From: Ignavibacteria bacterium
GTDB taxonomy: Bacteria; Bacteroidota; Ignavibacteria; Tepidaquicellales; OLB5
Reading direction: 5' to 3'
Length of the DNA stretch: 35,953 nt
Assembly (NCBI GenBank): GCA_019912545.1
Contig: JAIOIK010000058.1
Location: 1-35,953, forward strand
Below the pieces are notes generated by a model. The model searched no databases. It was not told the origin of the DNA and saw nothing but the letters and a program-made list of their open reading frames with translations. This document shows, in pieces, positions 2,728 through 18,028 of this stretch. Position numbers and translations under genes: made by a program. The stretch's first letter is position 1, and the number at the start of each line of letters is the position of its first letter.

Positions 2728-5700
2728 TTAATCTTGAATGGCAAGCTTGGAATCCTCTTCTGCGTGGAAATCCAATTCGGGGTTTTTGGCTTTATGGGTA
2801 GATAGGAATGTATAAACAGCGGGTACAACAAAGAGAGTTAGAAATGTAGAAAAAATCAATCCGCCTACAACACCTACTCCAAGCGAAACACGGCTTCCGG
2901 CTCCGGCGCCAACAGCTATCGGCAGTGCGCCAAGAATTGTTGCAAGGCTTGTCATAAGTATCGGCCTGAACCTCTGAACAGATGCTTCTATTACCGCCTC
3001 TATTTTACCAAGGCCTTGTTCTTTCTTCTGGTTGGCAAACTCAACAATTAGTATTGCATTCTTTGTGACAAGTCCCACAAGCATGATTATGCCTATCTGG
3101 CTGAAGATATTTAGCGTCATATCAAAATACCAGAGGCTTATCAATGCTCCGGTCATCGCCAGAGGCACGGTCAACAAAATAATGAACGGATCAACAAAGC
3201 TCTCGAACTGCGCAGCCAATACCAGGAATATTATCACAAGTGCAAAGATGAATGTAAACACAAGGCTTGATGAACTCTCGGCAAAATCCTTTGACTGCCC
3301 GGCAAGCGCCGTGTTAAACTCAGGCGGAAGAACTTTATCTGCTACCCGTTCCATAGCAATTATACCGTCACCAAGTGTATAGCCCTGTGAAAGACCTGCA
3401 GTCAGTGTTGCCGAAACATACCTGTTGTACCTGAATCTGGTTGTTGGAGTAGCTTGTTCATTCAGCCTGACAAGGTTATCCAGCTGAATAAGCTGACCGT
3501 CTTTGTTCTTCACTGTTAAGAACTTTATGTCATCAGGTCTATCACGCTTATCGCGTGTAACCTGGCCAAGTACCTGGCATTGCTTGCCGTCTTTGATATA
3601 ATAGCCAAACCTCTGGCTGCCAAAAGCGATCTGCAGTGTTCTGGCAACATCTTCAAACGAAACACCAAGATCAGCAGCTTTCTGCCGGTCAATTTCAAGA
3701 GAGATCTCAGGCTTATTTATCTTTAGGTTAACATCAACAAACTGAAGCTCAGGCTGCTGCTTGGCTTCTTCAAGGAACTTGGGCATGTATTCAAGGAGCT
3801 TATCAAAATTGGGTGCCTGCAAAACAAACTGCACAGGCTGTCCGCCAAACCTGCTGCCTATAGTTGGAGGCTGTGAAGGGACACCGCGAATACCGGTTAT
3901 TGTGTTGATATCCTTGGCGATCTTATTGTAAATCTGCTGCTGCGTTCTTTTCCTTTCGTCTGGCGGCTTTAGATACAAATTTATAAAACCGTTATTTGAC
4001 TGGCCCCCGCTGCCTGTATTAGTGATTGGGGTTGAAATTTCAGGGACGGAATCCACGATGAGTTTAGTCAAGTCTTCCATGTATGCCTGCATGTACTCAA
4101 AAGAAACACCCTCAGGCGCACTTGTCTGAATCCTGATATTTGAGCGGTCCTCGATGGGAGCCAGTTCCGACTTAAGCGAACTGCCAATTGTATAAATAAG
4201 CACGCCCATAAGCGCAATTATTACAAACCCAAGCCATCTGACTTTTATGAAAGAAATCAGTGCGTTCTTATAACTGTTGACAAGCCAAACGAAAAATGGC
4301 TCGGTTTTGAGATAGAACCAACTGTGCTTCTGATGAGATTTAAGAAGCCTTGAGCTTAACATTGGAGTTAATGTCAAAGCCACAAATGCGGAAACAAGAA
4401 CGGAGCCTGCTATAACAACGCCAAATTCTTTAAACAACCTTCCGGAGAGTCCCTGCAGGAATAATACCGGAAGAAAAACAGCGGCAATGGCAATTGTTGT
4501 TGAAATAACTGCAAAGTAGATCTCTTTTGATCCTTTGAAAGCAGCCTCGATAGGGCTCATGCCCTCCTCGATCTTGGAATATATATTTTCAAGCACAACT
4601 ATAGCATCATCTACAACAAGGCCAATTGCAAGAATTATACCAACGAGAGTTAATACATTAATTGAGAACCCCGCAGCGTACATAATGAAAAAAGCAGAAA
4701 TAATAGATGTAGGAATTGCAAGGATCGGTATTATTGTAGAACGCCAGTCACGCAGAAAAAGAAATATGATAAGTATTACTAGACCAAATGCGATGAAAAT
4801 TGTTTCTTCAACCTCATGTATGGTTGTTCTGATGTATTCGGAAAAATCGAAACCTATTTCGAGTTTAAAATCCGGCGGAATATCTTTCTTCAGCTGTTCA
4901 TATCGTTTTTTGAATTCGTCAGATATATCAATCGCGTTTGCGCCGGGCTGCATTGTAACTGCAACGCCAACACCGGGGATACCGTCACGCTTTAATGACT
5001 GTCTTTCGTTTTCAGCGCCAAGCTCTGCAAAACCAATGTCCTTAAATCTGACAATGCTGCCGCCTTCCTGTTTGATGATAAGATCATTGAATTCGGCAAC
5101 GCTTTTAAGCCTTCCAAATGTGCGTATTGAAAGCTCAGTGTTATCTCCTTCAATTCTGCCTGAAGGCAGCTCAACATTCTCTCGTGTTAGTGCCGCTTGT
5201 ACATCAAGCGGAGTGAGCCTGTATGCCGCAAGTTTCTCGGGATCGAGCCACATTCTCATTGCGTACTTGCGCTCACCAAATATCCGCACAGTACTTACTC
5301 CCGGAATAGTTTGTATTCGCTCTTTTATAACATTTGTAGCAAAGTCATTTACTTCAAGTATATTCCTTGAATCGCTCTGCACATACATAAATATTATGGG
5401 CGAGTCATCAGCATCTGATTTTTGAATAACGGGATTATCGATATCTCTCGGCAGATTTCTCTGCGCGCTGGATACTCTGTCCCTCACATCATTGGTAGCC
5501 TGTTCAAGATCGCGGCTGATATCAAACTCAATAGTGATCTGGCTTTGGCCTTCCCTGCTTTGCGAAGTAAGCGTTCTGATGCCATCAATACCGTTTAATG
5601 ATTGTTCAAGTGGCTCGGTGATCTGTGTTTCAATTACGTCTGAATTTGCGCCGGGGTAGTTTGTAGAAACAGTTACAATTGGCGGGTCAATACCGGGATA

Positions 5701-5808
5701 CTCTCTGACTTCAAGAAATGTAAATGCAACAACTCCAAAAATTATAATTACCAGTGAGAAAACTATGGATAGGACAGGCCGCTTTATTGAAGTTGCGCTT
5801 AGACTCAT
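2728..5808 (-). CDS. RND multidrug efflux pump permease (HAE1/AcrB family)
   Basis: At 1026 residues this has the usual length of hydrophobe/amphiphile-efflux RND pumps. TM1 begins at about residue 10 ('PVLSIVFSLVIIIFGVVAF'). The porter domain includes the 'YPGANSDVIE' and 'VREYPGIDPP' blocks. TM4 carries the proton-relay pair D400-D401 in 'GLVVDDAIVVLENI'. The second half has 'GLVTKNAILIVEFA' with the relay lysine. This supports a proton-driven inner-membrane pump exporting amphiphilic compounds across the envelope with its adaptor and a TolC-type channel. The start codon overlaps the stop of the adaptor gene by 1 nt (TAATG), so translation is probably coupled. No outer-membrane channel gene lies in the window, so one encoded elsewhere is presumably used. 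Substrate cannot be read from sequence. Confidence 0.93.
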   Translation of the reverse strand: MSLSATSIKRPVLSIVFSLVIIIFGVVAFTFLEVREYPGIDPPIVTVSTNYPGANSDVIETQITEPLEQSLNGIDGIRTLTSQSREGQSQITIEFDISRDLEQATNDVRDRVSSAQRNLPRDIDNPVIQKSDADDSPIIFMYVQSDSRNILEVNDFATNVIKERIQTIPGVSTVRIFGERKYAMRMWLDPEKLAAYRLTPLDVQAALTRENVELPSGRIEGDNTELSIRTFGRLKSVAEFNDLIIKQEGGSIVRFKDIGFAELGAENERQSLKRDGIPGVGVAVTMQPGANAIDISDEFKKRYEQLKKDIPPDFKLEIGFDFSEYIRTTIHEVEETIFIAFGLVILIIFLFLRDWRSTIIPILAIPTSIISAFFIMYAAGFSINVLTLVGIILAIGLVVDDAIVVLENIYSKIEEGMSPIEAAFKGSKEIYFAVISTTIAIAAVFLPVLFLQGLSGRLFKEFGVVIAGSVLVSAFVALTLTPMLSSRLLKSHQKHSWFYLKTEPFFVWLVNSYKNALISFIKVRWLGFVIIALMGVLIYTIGSSLKSELAPIEDRSNIRIQTSAPEGVSFEYMQAYMEDLTKLIVDSVPEISTPITNTGSGGQSNNGFINLYLKPPDERKRTQQQIYNKIAKDINTITGIRGVPSQPPTIGSRFGGQPVQFVLQAPNFDKLLEYMPKFLEEAKQQPELQFVDVNLKINKPEISLEIDRQKAADLGVSFEDVARTLQIAFGSQRFGYYIKDGKQCQVLGQVTRDKRDRPDDIKFLTVKNKDGQLIQLDNLVRLNEQATPTTRFRYNRYVSATLTAGLSQGYTLGDGIIAMERVADKVLPPEFNTALAGQSKDFAESSSSLVFTFIFALVIIFLVLAAQFESFVDPFIILLTVPLAMTGALISLWYFDMTLNIFSQIGIIMLVGLVTKNAILIVEFANQKKEQGLGKIEAVIEASVQRFRPILMTSLATILGALPIAVGAGAGSRVSLGVGVVGGLIFSTFLTLFVVPAVYTFLSTHKAKNPELDFHAEEDSKLAIQD

Positions 5809-6887
5809 TAATCTGCTTTTTCCACCTTCACAGATGAGTTATCTTTTATCCTGAGTATGTTAGTAGTTATGATAGTATCGCCTGTTTTAAGCTCATCTGA
5901 AATGATTTGGATCAATGTTTCGCTTCTTTCGCCGATCTCAACATCTATAGATTTTGCTTTTCCGTTTCTCACAACAAAAATGCTCTGCCCTTTTAACTTA
6001 GGAACCAGTGCCTGAGTAGGTATCATAATTGCGTTATCAATTTCGGATAGAGTGAATGATACATTGGCAAAAGTTCCGGGCAGCAGTTTTTTACTGGGAT
6101 TATCTGCAACTGCTCTTAAGACAAGGGACCGTGTATTATTTTCAATCTTAGGTTCAGAAGCATATACTTCAGCATCAAATTCGCCATCTATGCCTTCAAC
6201 TTTGAATTTCAGCTTCTGCCCTTTTTTGAAAAGATAAACGTATTTTTCGGGAATTGAAAAATCTATTTTGACCTTGCTCATGTCCTGCATAGTTGTCATA
6301 ACGGTCTGAGGAGTAACATATGAGCCATTACTAACATTGCGAAGTCCTATGATTCCGGAAAACGGTGCGCGAACATATGTTTTGCTGATATCAATCCTTG
6401 TAATTTGTATCTCTGCTCTTATCTGCTCAAGGGTGCTTTCCATAACTTCATAATCTTCTCTTGACGTCAATCCCTTATCAATGAGCTGCTTCTCTCTTTC
6501 AAGCTTGGATATTGCAAGCCTCTCATCTATTTCCTGGCGGCGCAATTTGGCCGTAAGATCATCTGAATCAAGTTTGAATAGAGTCCTCCCTTTTGATACA
6601 TATGTTCCTTCCTTAAAATATATTCCGCGGATCTTTCTGGATATCTCGCTTCTTATCTCGGCTTCTTCATTTGCCCTGATATTACCGATGGCTTTGATCT
6701 CGTTATTAAGCACTTCGGATTTGAGCACAAATCCGTCAACAGAAGTGATCTGATTTTGCTGATTAGTATTTTGACGCTGATTAGCCCCGGGCTTATCGGA
6801 ATTTGTGATTATCTTAGGTACAATGATTAAACCCAAAACTATTAATAGAAGTAAGGCTATGAGAATGATTCTGACGGTCTTGCTCAA
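5808..6887 (-). CDS. RND efflux periplasmic adaptor subunit (membrane fusion protein)
   Basis: The 359-residue protein has an N-terminal membrane anchor (residues 7-24), then a lipoyl-like half domain ('AEIRSEISRKIRGIYFKEG', about 76-94). A short alpha-hairpin (about 110-168) with 'LIDKGLTSREDYE' follows. The second lipoyl half begins at 'TYVRAPFSGIIG' (about 170-181), and beta-barrel and membrane-proximal domains complete it. This is the standard AcrA/MexA order, with a short hairpin. It links the pump encoded immediately downstream to an outer-membrane channel. It is the first gene of a two-gene operon and overlaps the pump start by 1 nt. The start codon is TTG. It was chosen because the anchor needs the preceding MSKTVR and a promoter-like element lies just upstream. 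Confidence 0.92.
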   Translation of the reverse strand: MSKTVRIILIALLLLIVLGLIIVPKIITNSDKPGANQRQNTNQQNQITSVDGFVLKSEVLNNEIKAIGNIRANEEAEIRSEISRKIRGIYFKEGTYVSKGRTLFKLDSDDLTAKLRRQEIDERLAISKLEREKQLIDKGLTSREDYEVMESTLEQIRAEIQITRIDISKTYVRAPFSGIIGLRNVSNGSYVTPQTVMTTMQDMSKVKIDFSIPEKYVYLFKKGQKLKFKVEGIDGEFDAEVYASEPKIENNTRSLVLRAVADNPSKKLLPGTFANVSFTLSEIDNAIMIPTQALVPKLKGQSIFVVRNGKAKSIDVEIGERSETLIQIISDELKTGDTIITTNILRIKDNSSVKVEKAD

Positions 6888-7078: not shown

Positions 7079-8824
7079 CTATTTCGTCAATATCATTTTA
7101 ATTGATTTACTCAACTTGCCGCTAACTAACCTGCAGATATATGTGCCGCTTGATAGATTTGAGCCGTCAAAATTGAATTCATACTTGCCTGGCCTGAGTA
7201 TTCCCGAATACAGCGTTCTGACTTCTTTGCCATTAATATCATATACTTTGATCGTGGAAGTATCATTAATACCGGCAGGTATATCAAATTTTACCTTTGT
7301 GGCAGGATTAAAAGGATTCGGGTAATTCTGATGAAGCCTGAATTTCTCCGGTACTTCGCTTCCAATTTGCTGAATTCCGATAGGATCAATTACTTCAAAG
7401 TTAAGCATCATCCCGTCATCTTCGTGTTCAAGATTATGGCAATGAAACAGGTATATTCCCTTATAATCTGTAAACCTGACTAATACTCTTACTGTTTCTG
7501 CAGGATTGAGATTTATTGTATCTTTCCATCCCTTATCTGCCGGAGGTAGATTTGTATTCCCATTGCGTGAATATACCTGCCATTGCAGACCATGAGCATG
7601 CATAGGATGAAAATCAGCAGTTTGGTTTATGATCTTCCATTCTTCGAGTGAATTAAGAGGAACTTCCCAGTCGATACGGTTAATATCAAAGGTTAGACCA
7701 TTTATTTTGTGCATAGGGTGAGTTGAACCCGATACAGACAAGGTAAACGTTCGGGTATTCACAACTTCATTAATATTGTAATATGTTATTGGATTAAACG
7801 CAGCAGGGACAACACCGCCGGATGCATTGTTACTCGTAACATCGAATCTTAAAATATCCAATGCTATTCCCTGCTTATACGGCAGAGTACCGGAATGAGA
7901 AAATGCTATCGACTTAAGTGTTACGCTTTGACCGATGGTGTTGGACGAAAAATCAACAAGAATATCAACTCTTTCGCCGGGTGCAAGATTGAATTGTGTT
8001 GCAGATACCGGAACATCTTTCAGCCCGCCATCAGTGGCTATTATGTGGAATGACCTGCTATCAGAAAATTCTATCCTGTAAACACGGGCGTTTGACCCGT
8101 TAAGAAGCCTAAAGCGGTACAATGTTCTTCCAACTTCAAAATATGCATCGGGAGTTCCGTTTACAAGGACAGTATCACCCAGGTAACCATACATCATTTC
8201 ACTTGTGCCGGGCGAATAAGTAAACTGCGGGGAGTTAGCCGTTCTTCTATCCTGTATGCAAAGCGGGACATCATAATTTCCTGAAGGCAGGTTGAAGTTC
8301 TCAGAAGGATCAGTAACAATAAAGAATCCTGCAAATCCTTTATAAACTTGTTTAGCTGTAATCATATCACCATGCGAGTGGTAGAAATATGTACCAGCCC
8401 TGTTAATGACAGGGAAAGTATAAGTTTTAGAACCGCCCAAGGGAACAGCATCTTTTGGATGCCCATCCATAATTTCAGGAACTGATAGACCATGCCAGTG
8501 TACGGTAGTTGGTTCGTTTACATTATTTACAAAATTCGCAGTAAAGGTTTGCCCTTTTTGTATAACAACAGATGGCGCAGGAAAAGAGCCGTTAACGGCA
8601 ATTACCTGAGTTGTCGCAGCTGGCAATGGCCACACTTGCACATTTGATTCAGCGAGCGTCATAGTTCCTCCATTTGTAAAAACGGGAGGAAACCTTAGTG
8701 GATTGCCCACCAGTTCGGTAAGTATTGCATTTCCTTTATCATTTGCAAAGAATTGTAAAGGTTTAGGAAGCGTTAAGATGACCCCGGCTTGTAAAGCCCT
8801 TAACAGCATTTCGCGTCTATTCAT
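7079..8824 (-). CDS. Multicopper oxidase with Tat-like signal and T9SS sorting domain
   Basis: A 581-residue three-cupredoxin oxidase of the CotA/CueO/SufI type. Copper ligands are visible at H109-W-H111, H149-S-H151, H406-P-M-H409-A-H411 and H461-C-H463...H467...M472. The HCHxxxHxxxxM motif supplies the type 1 site with an axial Met, so all four copper sites look intact and oxidation with reduction of O2 to water is expected. The N-terminus (NRREMLL..., R3-R4, then a hydrophobic stretch) is Tat-like. From residue about 496 the protein has the T9SS type A domain, beginning LHQNYPNPFNP and ending KSIKMILTK. The folded enzyme is therefore probably placed on the cell surface or released. Substrate (metal ion, phenolic or bilirubin-like) is unknown. 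It has its own promoter, a GGAGAG ribosome site and a terminator. Confidence 0.93.
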   Translation of the reverse strand: MNRREMLLRALQAGVILTLPKPLQFFANDKGNAILTELVGNPLRFPPVFTNGGTMTLAESNVQVWPLPAATTQVIAVNGSFPAPSVVIQKGQTFTANFVNNVNEPTTVHWHGLSVPEIMDGHPKDAVPLGGSKTYTFPVINRAGTYFYHSHGDMITAKQVYKGFAGFFIVTDPSENFNLPSGNYDVPLCIQDRRTANSPQFTYSPGTSEMMYGYLGDTVLVNGTPDAYFEVGRTLYRFRLLNGSNARVYRIEFSDSRSFHIIATDGGLKDVPVSATQFNLAPGERVDILVDFSSNTIGQSVTLKSIAFSHSGTLPYKQGIALDILRFDVTSNNASGGVVPAAFNPITYYNINEVVNTRTFTLSVSGSTHPMHKINGLTFDINRIDWEVPLNSLEEWKIINQTADFHPMHAHGLQWQVYSRNGNTNLPPADKGWKDTINLNPAETVRVLVRFTDYKGIYLFHCHNLEHEDDGMMLNFEVIDPIGIQQIGSEVPEKFRLHQNYPNPFNPATKVKFDIPAGINDTSTIKVYDINGKEVRTLYSGILRPGKYEFNFDGSNLSSGTYICRLVSGKLSKSIKMILTK

Positions 8825-8853
8825 GAATCTCTCCAGTTAAATATGTAATTGTG

Positions 8854-10738: not shown

Positions 10739-11182
10739 TTATTCTAACAAAATTCTGTATATACTTTTTATATTGCTTATGATTTTGCTTATGTCTTTCC
10801 TTTTAAGCACTGAATTTAAGTATCGAAATTCAGGATTCCATATTAATATTGATGTCCACTCATTAAGTGTTCTTGTCTTTATATCATATTCTTTACCACT
10901 TATGGTTAACAATTTCGGTAAATCATGTGTTTTGAAATCGCTTAATGAAGTAACAGAAGTGAATCTAATCTTTACTTTACTTTGATAACTATTTAACTCG
11001 CTTTTTGATTCCGGGAATCCATTTGAAAATTTAAAAATCTTGCATATATTATATTTTAATAATAATTCAATTACATATCCACCCAAATAAAAGGCACCTT
11101 GGTATCTCCGATTTTTCAATAGAACTTCTGCATCTTTCAATCGTTTCTTGGCTAATTCCCTTAAATCTTTCCTGGAAATCAT
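10739..11182 (-). CDS. HEPN-domain protein
   Basis: A 147-residue helical protein. The N-terminal 'RLKDAEVLLKNRRYQGAFYLGGYVIELLLKY' block (about 14-44) matches the HEPN pattern 'A..LL..gry..A.yLaGY.iE..LK'. 'KTHDLPKLL' follows at 84-92, and 'WNPEFRYL' later corresponds to the W..e.RY segment. HEPN proteins are often RNases of toxin-antitoxin or defence systems, or partners of minimal nucleotidyltransferases. The usual catalytic R-x4-6-H is not clear here: H86 is present but the nearest upstream arginine, R73, is 13 residues away. A non-catalytic HEPN is therefore possible. No nucleotidyltransferase gene is adjacent. The gene lies 13 bp after secA and 17 bp before the DUF2188 gene, in a more AT-rich segment than its neighbours. 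Confidence 0.75.
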   Translation of the reverse strand: MISRKDLRELAKKRLKDAEVLLKNRRYQGAFYLGGYVIELLLKYNICKIFKFSNGFPESKSELNSYQSKVKIRFTSVTSLSDFKTHDLPKLLTISGKEYDIKTRTLNEWTSILIWNPEFRYLNSVLKRKDISKIISNIKSIYRILLE

Positions 11183-11195
11183 CTCAAATTATTCT

Positions 11196-14100
11196 CTAAG
11201 CCTCTTTCCCATGGCAATTTTTATACTTCTTGCCGCTGCCGCAGGGACAGGGGTCGTTTCTGCCAACTTTGGGCCCAACTTTGATAGGGATCTTCTTTGT
11301 ATTATCACCGGGCTGATTCTGCAGGTTATCAGATTGTTCCGGGGTCATTTTGAGTCCCGCTCCATCAGCACTTGCCTTACTGGTAGTCATTCTTTGCGGA
11401 AGTCTTTGCCTTTGCTGCGGCACAGCTACCTGCTTTTCCTGCGTAGTAAACTTAAACACAAAGTTGATTACATCTTTGCTTATATCTTCAAGCATCTGAA
11501 CAAATAATCCGAAGCCGTCCTTTTTATACTCAATTAAAGGATCTTTCTGTCCATACGCGCGGAAGTTGATACCCTCTTTCAGGTCATCCATTTCCCTAAG
11601 GTGCTCTTTCCACTTATCATCAATTACAGTAAGCATAGCAAAACGCTCGATCTGAGCTATCAGGTCAATTCCATATTTTTCTTCTTTGCGTTTATAATTT
11701 TCATGTACTAAATTAAAAATATATTCTTCAAGTCCCTTTTCGCCAAGTGATTGAAATTTCTCAGGAGTAAGCTCCATCAAAACCATAAAAGTCCTTTGTA
11801 TCTCATCACGCAATCCGTTATAGTCGCCTTCGGGGTAGTATTTTGCGACAGTGTTTTCAACATAAGTCTTAGCCATATCAAAGATCTCATCTTTGATACG
11901 CTCTCCCATCAGCGCCTGTCTTCTTCTATCATAGATAACTTCTCGCTGCTGGTTCATAACGTTATCATACTCAAGCAGTCTTTTGCGTATGCCGAAGTTA
12001 TTTTCCTCAACTTTCTTCTGTGCGCGCTCTACAGAGCTGGTTATCATCGAGTGCTCAATGGCTTCGCCTTCTTCGATGCCAAGTTTTTCCATTACACGGG
12101 AGATTCTTTCACTGCCGAAAAGCCTCATCAGGTCATCTTCAAGGGAGAGGAAGAACTTAGAACTTCCCGGATCACCCTGCCTGCCTGCACGTCCGCGAAG
12201 CTGCCTGTCTATACGGCGCGCTTCATGACGCTCTGTACCAATAATATGCAAACCACCAAGATTTGCAACACCGGGTCCTAATTTTATATCAGTTCCTCGG
12301 CCTGCCATATTAGTAGCAATTGTAACTGCTCCTTTAAGTCCGGCATTCTGAATGATCTGAGCTTCACGCTGATGCTGTTTTGCATTTAACACTTCATGCG
12401 GCACGGTTTTGCGTTTCAGCATTCTGGATAGTGTCTCGGAAACTTCCACTGATGTTGTACCAACCAGCACCGGCCTGCCTATACCTCTCATCTTTTCAAT
12501 CTCGCCAATTACAGCATTATATTTTTCGCGCTTGGTTTTATAGACAACATCATTTACGTCATCGCGGATACAATCTTTATTTGTCGGGATAACTACAACA
12601 TCAAGCTTATAAATATCAAGGAACTCACCTGCTTCAGTTTCAGCAGTACCCGTCATACCTGCAAGCTTCTTATACAACCGGAAGTAGTTCTGCAAAGTGA
12701 TTGTTGCAAGTGTTTGGGTGTCCTTTTCAACATGCACGCCCTCTTTTGCCTCAATTGCCTGGTGAAGTCCTTCTGAATATCTTCTGCCCGGCAGTACACG
12801 TCCGGTGAATTCATCTACGATCATGATCTTGTTATCCTGTATCACATACTCTACGTCATTTTCATATAATGCGTATGCACGTAGTAATTGTTGAACAGTA
12901 TGGATACGATCGCTTCTCAGAGAATACAATTCCGCAAGATCATCCTTTTTCTTTTGCTTATCCTGTTCATTCAGAGCTTCATCATTTTCAATTTGAGCAA
13001 TTTCAGTTCCCATATCCGGCAATACAAAGAAATCCTTATCTTCATTGCCGGAAGTCAGAAATTCACGCCCTTTTTCGGTCAAATCTATAGAGTGCGCCTT
13101 TTCATCAATTGCAAAATACATTGCATCATCGATCTCAGGCATCCTTTTTGAATTATCGCGCAGGAATTCAATTTCAGTTTGCTGCTGAAGAGTTTTATTT
13201 GAGGGTTCACTGAATATCTTCAGCAATTTCTTATTTTTAGGGAAACCTCTTTGCGCTCTGAGAAGAGCTATTCCGGCTTCATGAATCTCTTCTTTTGAAG
13301 CTGCACTGCCTTTATTAATTACAGCTTCAGCTTCGCCAACATACTTGGCAATAAGGCTCTTCTGGGCGTCGACGATCCTTTTAACGCGAGGATTCATCTC
13401 ATCGAACTTATGCTCACTAAGCTCGACCGCACCTGATATTATGAGCGGAGTTCTAGCTTCATCAATAAGAACGGAGTCAACTTCATCCACGATCGAATAG
13501 TTATGACCTCGCTGAACCATAAACTTCTTATCAACAACCATATTATCGCGCAGGTAATCAAAACCAAACTCATTATTTGTACCGTAAACTATATCGCAGG
13601 CATATGCATCTCTTCTTTTATCATTATCAATATCATTAAGTATAACTCCAACGGTCAACCCATGGAATTTGAAAATTTCTCCCATCCATTCGCTATCTCG
13701 TTTTGCAAGGTAATCATTAACCGTAATAATGTGTACGCCTTTTCCGGGGAGTGCATTTAGGTATATAGGCAATGTCCCAACAAGCGTTTTACCTTCACCA
13801 GTTGCCATTTCGGCAATCTTACCCTGGTGTAGCACCATTCCGCCAATTAACTGAACGTCAAATGGTATCATATCCCAAATTACGCGGTTGCCTGAGGCCA
13901 TCCACTCTTTTCCAACAAGTCTGCGGCATGTATCCTTAACAACTGCAAATGCCTGGGGCAGGATCTCGTTGAGAGTGTCTTCAATTAACTCATCAAGTTC
14001 AATTTCATGAGTTTCAAGCTCATCATAAATAACTTTTCTTTCTTCATGAGTAATATCAGTTGTCAGTTTTGCTCTTAGCTCTGCAATTTTTTCTTCATGC

Positions 14101-14276
14101 TCCTGAGTATTCATTTTTATCAGGTCTTTGAACTCATGAGTTTTTGCCCTTAGCTCGTCGTCACTTAGATTTTTATACTCCTGATAATATGCATTAATCT
14201 CCTCAACTACCGGCAGCAGTTCTTTTACATCTTTTTCATGCTTAGACGGGAATATTTTCTTTAAGAATTTAAACAT
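11196..14276 (-). CDS. secA: Preprotein translocase ATPase SecA
   Basis: A 1026-residue SecA. The Walker A motif is 'MATGEGKT' (157-164). The Walker B region, '[16 protein letters not shown]', lies near residue 250, and the second helicase half contains '[13 protein letters not shown]' and '[14 protein letters not shown]'. The C-terminal zinc-binding SEC-C tail reads [14 protein letters not shown]. It is longer than E. coli SecA (901) because of an acidic insertion near residues 56-100 and a long segment at about 285-415 containing '[15 protein letters not shown]', as in Bacteroidota SecA. It drives Sec export at the inner membrane, which supplies the many Sec and T9SS substrates encoded nearby. 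It follows the thioredoxin-like gene by 76 bp and precedes the HEPN gene by 13 bp. Confidence 0.97.
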
Positions 14277-16153: not shown

Positions 16154-17800
16154 CTATTTAACTAATATCATTTTCTTTGTAACCCTGTAATCTCCAGCCG
16201 CTATTGTGTAAAAATAAATCCCGCTTGAAAATCCTGAAGCATTCCAAGCAATCTTATATTGTCCCAGATTTACATATTCATCAAGAAGAACTTCAATCTC
16301 TTTTCCGCTAACATCAAAAACAGATATCTTAACAAATGATGCCTTCGGAATATCAAATCTTATGGAAGTTGATGGATTAAACGGATTAGGATAATTTTGT
16401 GAAAGTACATAAACATTCGGTACAACATTAGAGATTGGCTCAATTGCACTTACTTTCGAATATCTTAGAGTATAAAAACCTGTATTAGTGCCGGTAAATT
16501 TCATAGAACCGGTTACAAAAATTTTATCTGTGTCCTGAACTGCAATCCCCGAAGCATAATCGTTAGAGCTTGCAGAACCATTTTCTCTCTGTTCCCATCC
16601 AAAGTCCCCGTTTCCTCTGTATGAAACAGTCAGGTAATCCATGCCTGTCCCTGAGCCCATACTTGTTCCGGTAACATAAACATTCCCTGAAACATTATCA
16701 ACGGTTATAGAAGACGGAAAATCATTTCCTGTATTTGAAGTCCTTTTTGCCCATTGCTGAACCAAAGATGAGTTATATTTTACTGTAGCATAATCATATG
16801 CAGAACTAACTCCTGTACTATTACCGGTTACATATACATTATTAAGGTTATCAATTGTCATCGCGGTAATCTGATCAATATTAGAAGCTGTTCCGTCATA
16901 AATTGCTGCTGCAAGGCTGTCTCCGCTTGATGCATTGTATTTAATGGTTATGAAGTCCTGATTTGTACCGGGTCTAAAACTATACCCGCCTACAAATACA
17001 CTTGAAAATGAATTATCCAAAACTACTGCAATTCCTTCATCAAAATAATTAGAGGTACCATTATGCTTTTTAGCCCAGGCGACAGTACCGTTGCTGTTTA
17101 TCTTCAAACTAAGTATATCATCTGTAGTAGCTACTCCTGTTCCCGACTTCCCCGTTATATATGCATTTCCAGATCCGTCAGCTTTTACAGAACGGGCTTC
17201 ATCAAAAATATTAGAAATCCCTCCGCTGTAAACTGATGGCCAGCCGCTTGCCATATTACCGCTTGCATCATACTTGAGCGTGGTAAACTTCTGAGCTCCA
17301 CCAACGTCGCTTCTTCCAGTAACATATACATTTCCTGATCCGTCAACAGCAACAGAAAATCCATAATCACCGCCATTGCCGGTACCATTATATGTTTTCA
17401 ACCATAAACGCGTGCCACTAGCAGCATCATACTTAATTGTAATAATATCTCTGCTTGGCGTAAAAGAATAACCGGTAACATAAACGGCGGTGTTATCACT
17501 TGTAATTGAATATACCTTATCGTCCATTGCACCGGAATATCTGTTTACCCATAAAGTATCTCCATTAGATGGGTCATACCTTAAAGTAACTATATCTGTA
17601 CCGGTACCTGTTCCAGCACTCCATCCTGTAACAAAAACCATTCCGGAAGAATTCAAAGAAACCCCAACTGATGAATCCTGAATAACGGAAGGACCATTAT
17701 ATTTCTTTGCCCAAATTGTGCTGGGCTGAGAAAATAAATCGTTATGGAAGCCAACAAGAATAAATGAAATGAGTAATATGTAGAGAATATATTTCTTCAT
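16154..17800 (-). CDS. Secreted SBBP-repeat beta-propeller-like protein with T9SS sorting domain
   Basis: The chosen start is the ATG at 17800, giving 548 residues. It places a clean Sec signal peptide at the N-terminus (MKKYILYILLISFILVGF..., cleavage likely after 'LFSQ'); a longer frame to 17938 only adds an unlikely leader. Most of the mature protein is eight or so repeats with the core '...YVTGxS...DxxTxKYxxxG'. This is the SBBP (seven-bladed beta-propeller-type) repeat common in surface proteins of this phylum. The last about 85 residues are a T9SS type A domain (LSQNYPNPFNPSTSIRFDIP... ending KKMILVK). The protein is expected at the cell surface; ligand binding or adhesion is inferred. 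The gene is monocistronic with a strong terminator. A cluster of inverted and direct repeats lies about 50-80 bp before the start. Confidence 0.88.
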   Translation of the reverse strand: MKKYILYILLISFILVGFHNDLFSQPSTIWAKKYNGPSVIQDSSVGVSLNSSGMVFVTGWSAGTGTGTDIVTLRYDPSNGDTLWVNRYSGAMDDKVYSITSDNTAVYVTGYSFTPSRDIITIKYDAASGTRLWLKTYNGTGNGGDYGFSVAVDGSGNVYVTGRSDVGGAQKFTTLKYDASGNMASGWPSVYSGGISNIFDEARSVKADGSGNAYITGKSGTGVATTDDILSLKINSNGTVAWAKKHNGTSNYFDEGIAVVLDNSFSSVFVGGYSFRPGTNQDFITIKYNASSGDSLAAAIYDGTASNIDQITAMTIDNLNNVYVTGNSTGVSSAYDYATVKYNSSLVQQWAKRTSNTGNDFPSSITVDNVSGNVYVTGTSMGSGTGMDYLTVSYRGNGDFGWEQRENGSASSNDYASGIAVQDTDKIFVTGSMKFTGTNTGFYTLRYSKVSAIEPISNVVPNVYVLSQNYPNPFNPSTSIRFDIPKASFVKISVFDVSGKEIEVLLDEYVNLGQYKIAWNASGFSSGIYFYTIAAGDYRVTKKMILVK

Positions 17801-17851
17801 ATAATTATTATTTAGATTACAATGCTGATTAACACAAAATACTTTAAATAT

Positions 17852-17880
17852 GGTATGTTTACAATACCGTTTACACGGTA
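17852..17880. promoter_or_regulatory. Nested inverted and direct repeats, possible operator
   Basis: GGTAT-N7-ATACC (17852-17868) partly overlaps TACCGT-N4-ACGGTA (17865-17880). GTTTACA occurs twice, 12 bp apart (17857 and 17869). The site lies 52-80 bp before the start of the SBBP gene, where a regulator could bind. No consensus promoter was found beside it, so the role is inferred. Confidence 0.4.
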
Positions 17881-18028
17881 GCAACATTCTAATTATGTCG
17901 ATTAAAGCTAAATATTGTAATTTCTTATTTAATAACATAGTTAATTAATATCGCTATGTCAATAAATATTTCAGTTAATTATTGTAGCTATACGCTGGAC
18001 TGTAATAGTTGGTACATACTAATGAAAG

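What the first reader, a model, noticed from the sequence alone, without database searches (positions are those of the whole stretch)
7079..8824. Multicopper oxidase with both a Tat-like signal and a T9SS type A tail
R3-R4 in an NRREMLL context followed by a hydrophobic stretch suggests Tat export. The C-terminus is a full T9SS sorting domain starting LHQNYPNPFNP. Tat transports folded, cofactor-loaded proteins while T9SS cargo usually arrives by Sec. If both signals work, a copper-loaded enzyme crosses the outer membrane folded. All four copper sites look intact.
Basis: partly seen in the sequence, partly recalled or inferred. Interest (0 to 1): 0.5.

Follow-up and report, generated by a model that had tools for sequence, protein, structure and literature searches.

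The report
Twin-arginine copper oxidase with surface-export tail
A copper enzyme of an uncultured Ignavibacteria-type bacterium carries two address labels rarely considered together, one for crossing the inner membrane already folded and one for the outer-membrane export machine, and relatives plus two unrelated protein families carry the same pair, which suggests a general way to put ready-made metal enzymes outside the cell.

Summary
The 581-aa ORF at 7079-8824(-) is a three-domain multicopper oxidase with all copper ligands, R3-R4 at the N-terminus, and a type A T9SS tail over the curated cut-off. Both labels look selected: among 80 named relatives, 28 of 28 tailed members with a readable N-terminus have the twin arginine, with varying Arg codons, and their signals resemble this genome's Tat substrates more than its Sec-type T9SS cargo. 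TatC, TatA, SprA and PorV are present. Against: Tat models miss the window protein itself (they match some tailed relatives), its cleavage site is weak, and four distant T9SS-tailed oxidases of the class have Sec-type signals, so Tat is not obligatory for such enzymes. The pair is not confined to this gene: T9SS-tailed Rieske [2Fe-2S] proteins (15 of 15 read have RR; 13 of 15 canonical cluster ligands) and DUF1501 proteins carry it too. Since Rieske clusters are inserted in the cytoplasm (recalled), these make a Tat-then-T9SS relay hard to avoid. I found no paper describing such cargo. Copper loading before outer-membrane passage is not shown.

The parts
7079..8824 (-). multicopper oxidase gene, 581 aa, Tat-like signal plus T9SS type A tail
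8831..8834 (-). GGAG ribosome-binding site, supports the ATG at 8824
   Evidence: read
8744..8824 (-). signal peptide region, residues 1-27 (cleavage after A27 is a guess)
   Evidence: helix 3-17 in the model, low confidence
8813..8818 (-). twin arginine R3-R4 (codons AGA CGC)
   Evidence: invariant in the 23 rows of A2; synonymous codon changes in relatives
7379..8683 (-). three cupredoxin domains, residues 48-482
   Evidence: PF07732, PF00394, PF07731; PDB sequence hits; model and fold search
8492..8500 (-). HWH, residues 109-111, type 2/3 copper ligands
   Evidence: invariant in A2
8372..8380 (-). HSH, residues 149-151, type 3 copper ligands
   Evidence: both His invariant in A2
7592..7609 (-). 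HPMHAH, residues 406-411, type 1/2/3 ligands
   Evidence: H406, H409, H411 invariant in A2
7409..7444 (-). HCHNLEHEDDGM, residues 461-472, type 1/3 ligands
   Evidence: H461, C462, H463, H467, M472 invariant in A2
7082..7336 (-). T9SS type A sorting domain, residues 497-581 (stop codon excluded)
   Evidence: TIGR04183 40.1 bits; PF18962 36.8 bits; C-terminal beta strands in the model

Best explanation
The protein is a CueO/bilirubin-oxidase-like multicopper oxidase delivered outside the cell by a two-step relay. Step 1 (inferred from the signal): the Tat translocase recognises the short R3-R4 signal and moves the folded or nearly folded protein to the periplasm. Step 2 (inferred from the tail and from SprA/PorV in the genome): the C-terminal Ig-like sorting domain brings it to the T9SS, which passes it through the outer membrane and leaves it on the surface or outside. 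Copper may enter before or after step 1; that is open. There it would oxidise a substrate such as Cu(I), Mn(II), Fe(II) or phenols with O2 (inferred from family only). In tail-less relatives the same Tat-type signal often ends in a Cys lipobox, so the T9SS tail looks like one of several fates for a Tat-exported oxidase. Shown: gene, motifs, conservation, machinery genes, co-occurrence in other families. Inferred: both transport steps, localisation, activity.
For: Tail over cut-off. Own genome: TatC 230.7 bits, TatA 65.7 bits, SprA 956.8 bits with its neighbours in the frame, PorV 275.6 bits, cut-off 250, and 150 listed type A tails, 150 scored of 273 candidates. TatA in 14 of 15 family genomes; TatC in 241 of 245 class genomes. 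Of 80 named relatives, 29 have the NPF-type tail: 27 show RR in frame, one (L081) in another frame, one (L071) is cut at its N-terminus: 28 of 28 readable. Arg codons vary over 27 rows: R3 AGA 19, CGA 5, CGC 3; R4 six codons. Best 11-residue hydropathy: window 1.74, tailed RR oxidases 1.77 +/- 0.20 (n 27), seven Tat substrates of this genome 1.93 +/- 0.23, Sec-type T9SS cargo 2.81 +/- 0.38 (n 135; 1 of 135 at or below the window). Curated Tat model TIGR01409 (cut-off 16.7) is exceeded by tailed oxidases L091 17.5 (tail 39.2, over), L270 19.5 (tail 22.5 of 23) and L272 21.7 (tail 16.1, weak); in the genome search also by the genes of L279 (18.7; tail 23.8, over) and, with its neighbours in the frame, L269 (16.8; tail 13.6, weak). 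Same pair elsewhere: DUF1501 L369 tail 42.3, Tat 19.0; Rieske L326 tail 32.1, Tat 18.1, over both cut-offs.
Against: No Tat model matches the window protein at E <= 1 or E <= 10; PF10518 matched 1 of the 23 rows of A2, weakly (0.041), TIGR01409 is not among the families listed for A2, and the genome-wide TIGR01409 search missed the oxidase. The motif lacks the consensus S/T before RR and F at +2 (N-R-R-E-M). The presumed cleavage site FFA|ND has a bulky -3 residue. T9SS-tailed oxidases L283, L284, L285, L287 have Sec-type signals without RR and intact copper motifs; their hydropathy (2.19 +/- 0.49, 1.47 to 2.65, n 4) overlaps that of the RR group, so hydropathy alone does not separate the routes. 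T9SS substrates are described as Sec-exported (PMC9251779, passages). No localisation data exist; PorU, PorKLMN and TatB were not searched.
Confidence: 0.8

Rival explanations
1. Ordinary Sec cargo with a coincidental twin arginine: SecYEG exports the chain unfolded, it folds and binds copper in the periplasm, and T9SS secretes it.
For: 135 of the 137 listed T9SS cargo of this genome with a visible signal have no RR. Four distant T9SS-tailed oxidases are Sec-type. Tat models miss the window protein.
Against: RR in 28 of 28 readable tailed relatives with synonymous codon turnover and no Lys at either place in 27 rows; h-region as weak as in true Tat substrates; some tailed relatives exceed the Tat cut-off.
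Confidence: 0.12
2. Tat-exported periplasmic oxidase whose C-terminal domain no longer acts as an export signal (a relic or a plain Ig-like domain).
For: Tail function is inferred from sequence alone; relatives L263, L267, L268 are RR proteins in which I saw neither tail nor lipobox (L263 also scanned).
Against: Tail core invariant in the 23 rows of A2, over curated cut-offs, T9SS genes present.
Confidence: 0.05
3. The Tat signal is not cleaved, so the protein stays anchored in the inner membrane facing the periplasm and never reaches the T9SS.
For: Weak site FFA|ND in the window and similar ends in its nearest relatives.
Against: Distant tailed members have a cleavable-looking YSQ end (L075, L078), as in many cargo of this genome; a conserved tail would be pointless.
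Confidence: 0.03

Closest known systems
CueO (E. coli) and related periplasmic multicopper oxidases
   Same: Three cupredoxin domains, four copper sites, Tat export; Foldseek TMt 0.80-0.89 to the CueO entries listed, first hit 8z59 (Sulfurimonas oxidase, 0.88).
   Different: 305.4 bits against the CueO equivalog cut-off of 525; I see no Met-rich loop in the sequence; carries a T9SS tail.
T9SS type A cargo proteins (TIGR04183 / PF18962)
   Same: C-terminal sorting domain with NYPNPF core; SprA and PorV in the genome.
   Different: Typical cargo of this genome use strongly hydrophobic Sec signals; this one has a Tat-like signal.
Tail-less CueO-like oxidases of Bacteroidota and Kapabacteria
   Same: Nearest relatives without a tail (39-47% identity); 29 of the 46 with a Cys lipobox also have RR (my loose lipobox pattern).
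   Different: Probably lipoproteins; no sorting domain.

Membership tests
Tat substrate | Twin arginine in the n-region | tested here: met
   R3-R4; invariant in A2, 28 of 28 readable tailed relatives
Tat substrate | Full S/T-R-R-x-F-L-K consensus (SRRxFLK quoted from passages of PMC13323110) | tested here: not met
   Window has N-R-R-E-M-L-L; L074-L080, L082, L083 have [KR]-R-R-[DE]-F-[IV]. Many Tat signals deviate (recalled)
Tat substrate | Moderate h-region hydropathy | tested here: met
   1.74, against 1.93 for 7 Tat substrates and 2.81 for 135 Sec-type cargo; but 4 Sec-type oxidases overlap (1.47-2.65)
Tat substrate | Match to a curated Tat signal model | tested here: not met
   None for the window protein; met by relatives L091, L270, L272, L279 and L269
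Tat substrate | Tat translocase in the genome | tested here: met
   TatC, TatA; the Glu of HLxELR and of FIEPxLxxxE align with Aquifex TatC. TatB not searched
Tat substrate | Export lost without Tat | not testable with these tools
   needs a mutant
T9SS type A cargo | C-terminal sorting domain over curated cut-off | tested here: met
   40.1 of 23 bits; 36.8 of 27 bits
T9SS type A cargo | T9SS core in the genome | tested here: met
   SprA, PorV; PorU, PorKLMN, PorT not searched
T9SS type A cargo | Sec-type signal peptide, as described for known cargo | tested here: not met
   Tat-like signal
Three-domain multicopper oxidase | Cupredoxin domains and all copper ligands | tested here: met
CueO (cuprous oxidase equivalog) | NF008205 cut-off 525 bits | tested here: not met
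   305.4 bits
CueO (cuprous oxidase equivalog) | Met-rich copper-binding segment | tested here: inconclusive
   Not seen on reading the sequence; no dedicated search

The most novel reading that the evidence does not exclude
In the class to which the window's genome belongs (named relatives are mostly Ignavibacteria and Kapabacteria), a Tat-to-T9SS relay is a general second export line beside Sec-to-T9SS. It delivers metalloproteins assembled in the cytoplasm, multicopper oxidases and Rieske iron-sulphur proteins, plus DUF1501 proteins, folded and cofactor-bearing to the cell surface, where they could serve extracellular redox chemistry.
Probability: 0.55. Interest if true: 0.78.

Novelty: new variant of a known kind. 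Interest (0 to 1): 0.62.

Why it matters
T9SS cargo are described as Sec-exported (PMC9251779, passages). A natural set of cargo that must be folded, with cofactor, before crossing the inner membrane would give a direct test of whether T9SS accepts pre-folded holoproteins from Tat. It would also explain how an Fe-S protein could reach a cell surface, and may bear on a puzzle in print: T9SS-tailed proteins in which SignalP 6 saw no signal, for which the authors propose another route or an undetected signal (PMC11928666, passages). The Rieske cargo are the sharpest test, because their cluster is inserted in the cytoplasm (recalled). It also offers a design for showing metalloenzymes on cell surfaces.

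Tried and rejected
Considered and rejected: a wrong start codon (an RBS lies before the ATG; the frame has only four codons upstream, none ATG, GTG or TTG); a chance fusion of oxidase and tail (29 of 80 relatives have the NPF tail); absence of Tat. A rule 'T9SS tail or lipobox, never neither' was dropped: L263, L267, L268 show neither. A rule 'every T9SS-tailed oxidase is Tat' was dropped because of L283, L284, L285, L287.

Led nowhere: viral contigs (no relative confirmed); PhoX papers; Cytophaga TatC (listing); a search on CueO copper loading (none). Papers that held suggestive terms but no such cargo in the passages shown: PMC8400371, PMC3593330, PMC3237569. The tail scores took the wrong domain row; one search gives corrected ones. 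In one search row L118 was labelled 'no RR' although its N-terminus is unreadable, so the RR change count of 7 there is approximate; that tree used 42 of the 80 named rows, 19 class rows and the window. One group is labelled 'h>=2.0', but the filter was 1.5.

Full report
What is there. The ORF at 7079-8824 on the minus strand encodes 581 aa. Pfam finds three multicopper-oxidase domains and a Por secretion tail; NCBIfam gives TIGR04183 40.1 bits, cut-off 23. The best solved relative by sequence is 8z59 (339.8 bits). An AlphaFold model from the 23-row alignment A2 has mean pLDDT 80.0, a barely ordered N-terminal helix at residues 3-17, many strands through residues 54-479, and six further strands from 508 to 579 in the tail. 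Foldseek puts 8z59 first (37% identity, TMt 0.88), then an Aquifex oxidase and CueO forms. All copper ligands are present and invariant in A2. It is not a CueO by NCBIfam's cut-off (305.4 of 525 bits).

Machinery. The window's genome (3.66 Mb, 99.68% complete) has TatC (230.7 bits), TatA (65.7 bits), SprA and PorV (275.6 bits). TatC is in 241 of 245 class genomes. I did not search PorU, PorKLMN or TatB.

Is the twin arginine real. I read the N-termini of the 150 listed cargo from fetched stretches. 137 have a visible signal by my filter (best 11-residue hydropathy 1.5 or more, frame over 115 aa); the other 13 were dropped. Two of the 137 have RR in the n-region, with cores of 2.85 and 2.40. 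The window protein scores 1.74, tailed RR oxidases average 1.77 (n 27), seven Tat substrates of this genome 1.93, tailed RR Rieske proteins 1.92 (n 14 of 15; L387 left out) and 135 Sec-type cargo 2.81; 1 of these 135 is at or below the window. Against this, the four Sec-type tailed oxidases described below average 2.19 and reach down to 1.47, so the measure supports but does not decide. The rows are related to one another, so the Mann-Whitney value printed is descriptive only. In 27 tailed relatives the two Arg positions use three and six different Arg codons; Lys, one base away from AGA, does not appear.

Relatives. A scan of named genomes kept the best 80 of 339 relatives. By: 27 have RR, an NPF-type tail and no lipobox; 46 have a lipobox (loose pattern) and no NPF tail (29 with RR, 17 without); L083, L089 and L091 have RR but neither by my patterns (L083 is cut by its contig end; L091 does have a tail by TIGR04183; L089 has a 93-residue extension without a TIGR04183 match); L071 and L081 have tails but no in-frame RR (L071 is cut; L081 has MKRREFLIK in another frame just upstream); L114 and L118 are unreadable at the N-terminus. 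So 28 of 28 readable NPF-tailed relatives carry the twin arginine. The NPF-tailed rows, the window and L083 form one clade (SH-aLRT 99). L091 exceeds both curated cut-offs in one protein: Tat 17.5 of 16.7 and tail 39.2 of 23.

Against a simple story. A class-wide search found the oxidase (E <= 1e-80) in 53 of 245 genomes. Besides the loci of that search I read 27 further stretches. Ten divergent members (L265, L266, L269-L273, L278-L280) have RR; their tails score over cut-off in L266, L278, L279, close below in L265, L270, L271, and weakly (13.6-17.5) in L269, L272, L273, L280. L270 and L272 exceed the Tat cut-off as proteins (19.5, 21.7); the genome search adds the genes of L279 (18.7) and, with its neighbours in the frame, L269 (16.8). 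Four others (L283, L284, L285, L287) have strong tails (34.9-45.9 bits), intact copper motifs and Sec-type N-termini without RR; they form a separate clade on a long branch (1.25). The remaining 13 stretches: L263, L267, L268 (RR, no tail, no lipobox), L264, L276, L277 (RR, lipobox, no tail), L274 (the gene of L089), L275 and L281 (tail or tail-like end, N-terminus unreadable), L282 and L286 (no RR, no tail), L288 (RR, cut), L289 (two tandem RR copies with tails). Thus a T9SS copper oxidase can do without Tat. For the window protein itself no Tat model rings.

Beyond this gene. I searched ten class genomes with the Tat signal model: 84 matches at E <= 0.5. From loci and fetched stretches at least 16 of the 84 sit in frames with a T9SS-like tail; this is a lower bound, because my motif filter passed over some frames, and one more (L363) is doubtful because its core is Sec-like. 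Five are oxidases (the genes of L269, L270, L272, L278, L279; weak tails in L269 and L272), nine are DUF1501 proteins (eight by Pfam; L364 by likeness only), two are Rieske proteins (L326, L338). Ten of these eleven non-oxidase proteins were scanned and all ten are at or over the TIGR04183 cut-off (L372 exactly 23.0); the eleventh, L359, was not scanned there and stays under the Pfam tail cut-off (17.9 of 27). The Tat model is over its cut-off in six of the eleven in the genome search but in only two of ten as proteins, L369 and L326.

Because those were found through the Tat model, I tested both families by routes not keyed to it. A class search with residues 1-165 of the Rieske protein L338 (signal included) matched 122 of 245 genomes. 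Of the best 30 loci returned, 15 have a T9SS-like tail and all 15 have RR. Two of the 15 are the query and L326 themselves, so 13 of 13 are new. 13 of the 15 keep C-x-H...C-x2-H, while L380 and L386 have altered spacing. Of the 15 loci without a tail, 8 have RR. All 15 tailed proteins match TIGR04183 and a Rieske model at E <= 0.05, and 4 match the Tat model. A DUF1501 search of the 15 family genomes returned 15 matches: five (in G001, G005, G007, G011, G012; the G007 one is L369 again) have RR and a tail; seven of the other ten have RR without a tail (L408, L409, L411-L415); L410 and L416 are cut at the N-terminus and L422 is a fragment. In the window's own genome the DUF1501 protein (L411) and the Rieske protein (L238) are tail-less Tat types, and the oxidase is the only double-signal protein I found there, with the capped tail list in mind.

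Mechanism. The simplest reading is a relay: Tat to the periplasm, then T9SS outward. The Rieske cargo carry the argument, since [2Fe-2S] clusters are inserted in the cytoplasm and such proteins are classic Tat substrates (recalled). For the copper oxidase the time of copper loading is open; the CueO paper cited by title in PMC11198818 warns against assuming it precedes Tat transport. The Tat core-complex paper (PMC13323110, passages) describes MdoD, whose signal also has R3-R4; the TatC glutamates named there (E15, E103) appear to have counterparts in this TatC (HLEELR, FIEPGLMPSE, aligned to Aquifex TatC, so the match to E. coli numbering is my inference).

Literature. Searches on type IX or Por secretion with twin-arginine or Tat, and with multicopper oxidase, PhoX, Rieske or DUF1501, and on Cytophaga TatC (listings), and passages of PMC4804311, PMC5445135, PMC9251779, PMC8115612, PMC13211072, PMC9127263, PMC5121618, PMC6549377, PMC8400371, PMC3593330, PMC3237569 and PMC11928666 show no described Tat-plus-T9SS cargo. 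Nearest: PMC5445135 speaks of Sec/Tat/holin export ahead of two-step secretion systems in general, and PMC11928666 notes T9SS-tailed proteins in which SignalP 6 saw no signal, for which it proposes another route or an undetected signal. Most listed papers were not opened, and the library holds only open papers, so this is no proof of absence.

Verdict. The wider pattern, above all Tat-plus-T9SS Rieske proteins, is the more interesting result.

Noticed in passing
L378-L389, L391, L392, L405 (alignment A3): Rieske [2Fe-2S] proteins of about 250 aa with a twin-arginine signal and a T9SS type A tail; 13 of 15 keep canonical cluster ligands.
   Followed up: partly
L417-L421, L369: DUF1501 proteins with Tat signal and T9SS tail, beside tail-less Tat-type DUF1501 proteins (L408, L409, L411-L415) in the same family of genomes.
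   Followed up: partly
L283, L284, L285, L287: A separate clade of T9SS-tailed multicopper oxidases with Sec-type signals and intact copper motifs: a natural control group.
   Followed up: partly
window 2728-6887 (-): RND efflux permease (multidrug type by score, below curated cut-offs) and its adaptor directly downstream of the oxidase; similar genes lie near the oxidase in several relatives.
   Followed up: partly
window 11196-14276 (-): secA gene, third gene upstream of the oxidase.
   Followed up: no
window 10739-11182 (-): Small HEPN-domain protein between secA and the K+/H+ antiporter.
   Followed up: no
window 16154-17938 (-): Second T9SS type A cargo in the window, Sec-type signal.
   Followed up: no
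L289: Two oxidase genes in tandem in genome G157; the second has a longer C-terminal extension and CHWHG in place of IHWHG.
   Followed up: no
L081: Oxidase frame begins without a signal, while MKRREFLIK lies in another frame just upstream: a frameshift or assembly error.
   Followed up: no
G000:C32:29824-30051 (-): T9SS cargo starting MRRRYFIKIIFSF: RR in front of a fairly hydrophobic core (2.40); could be an ambiguous Tat/Sec signal.
   Followed up: no
L390, L393, L394, L398, L401, L407: Tail-less Rieske-like proteins that start DRKEFL (RK in place of RR) with a Cys shortly after.
   Followed up: no
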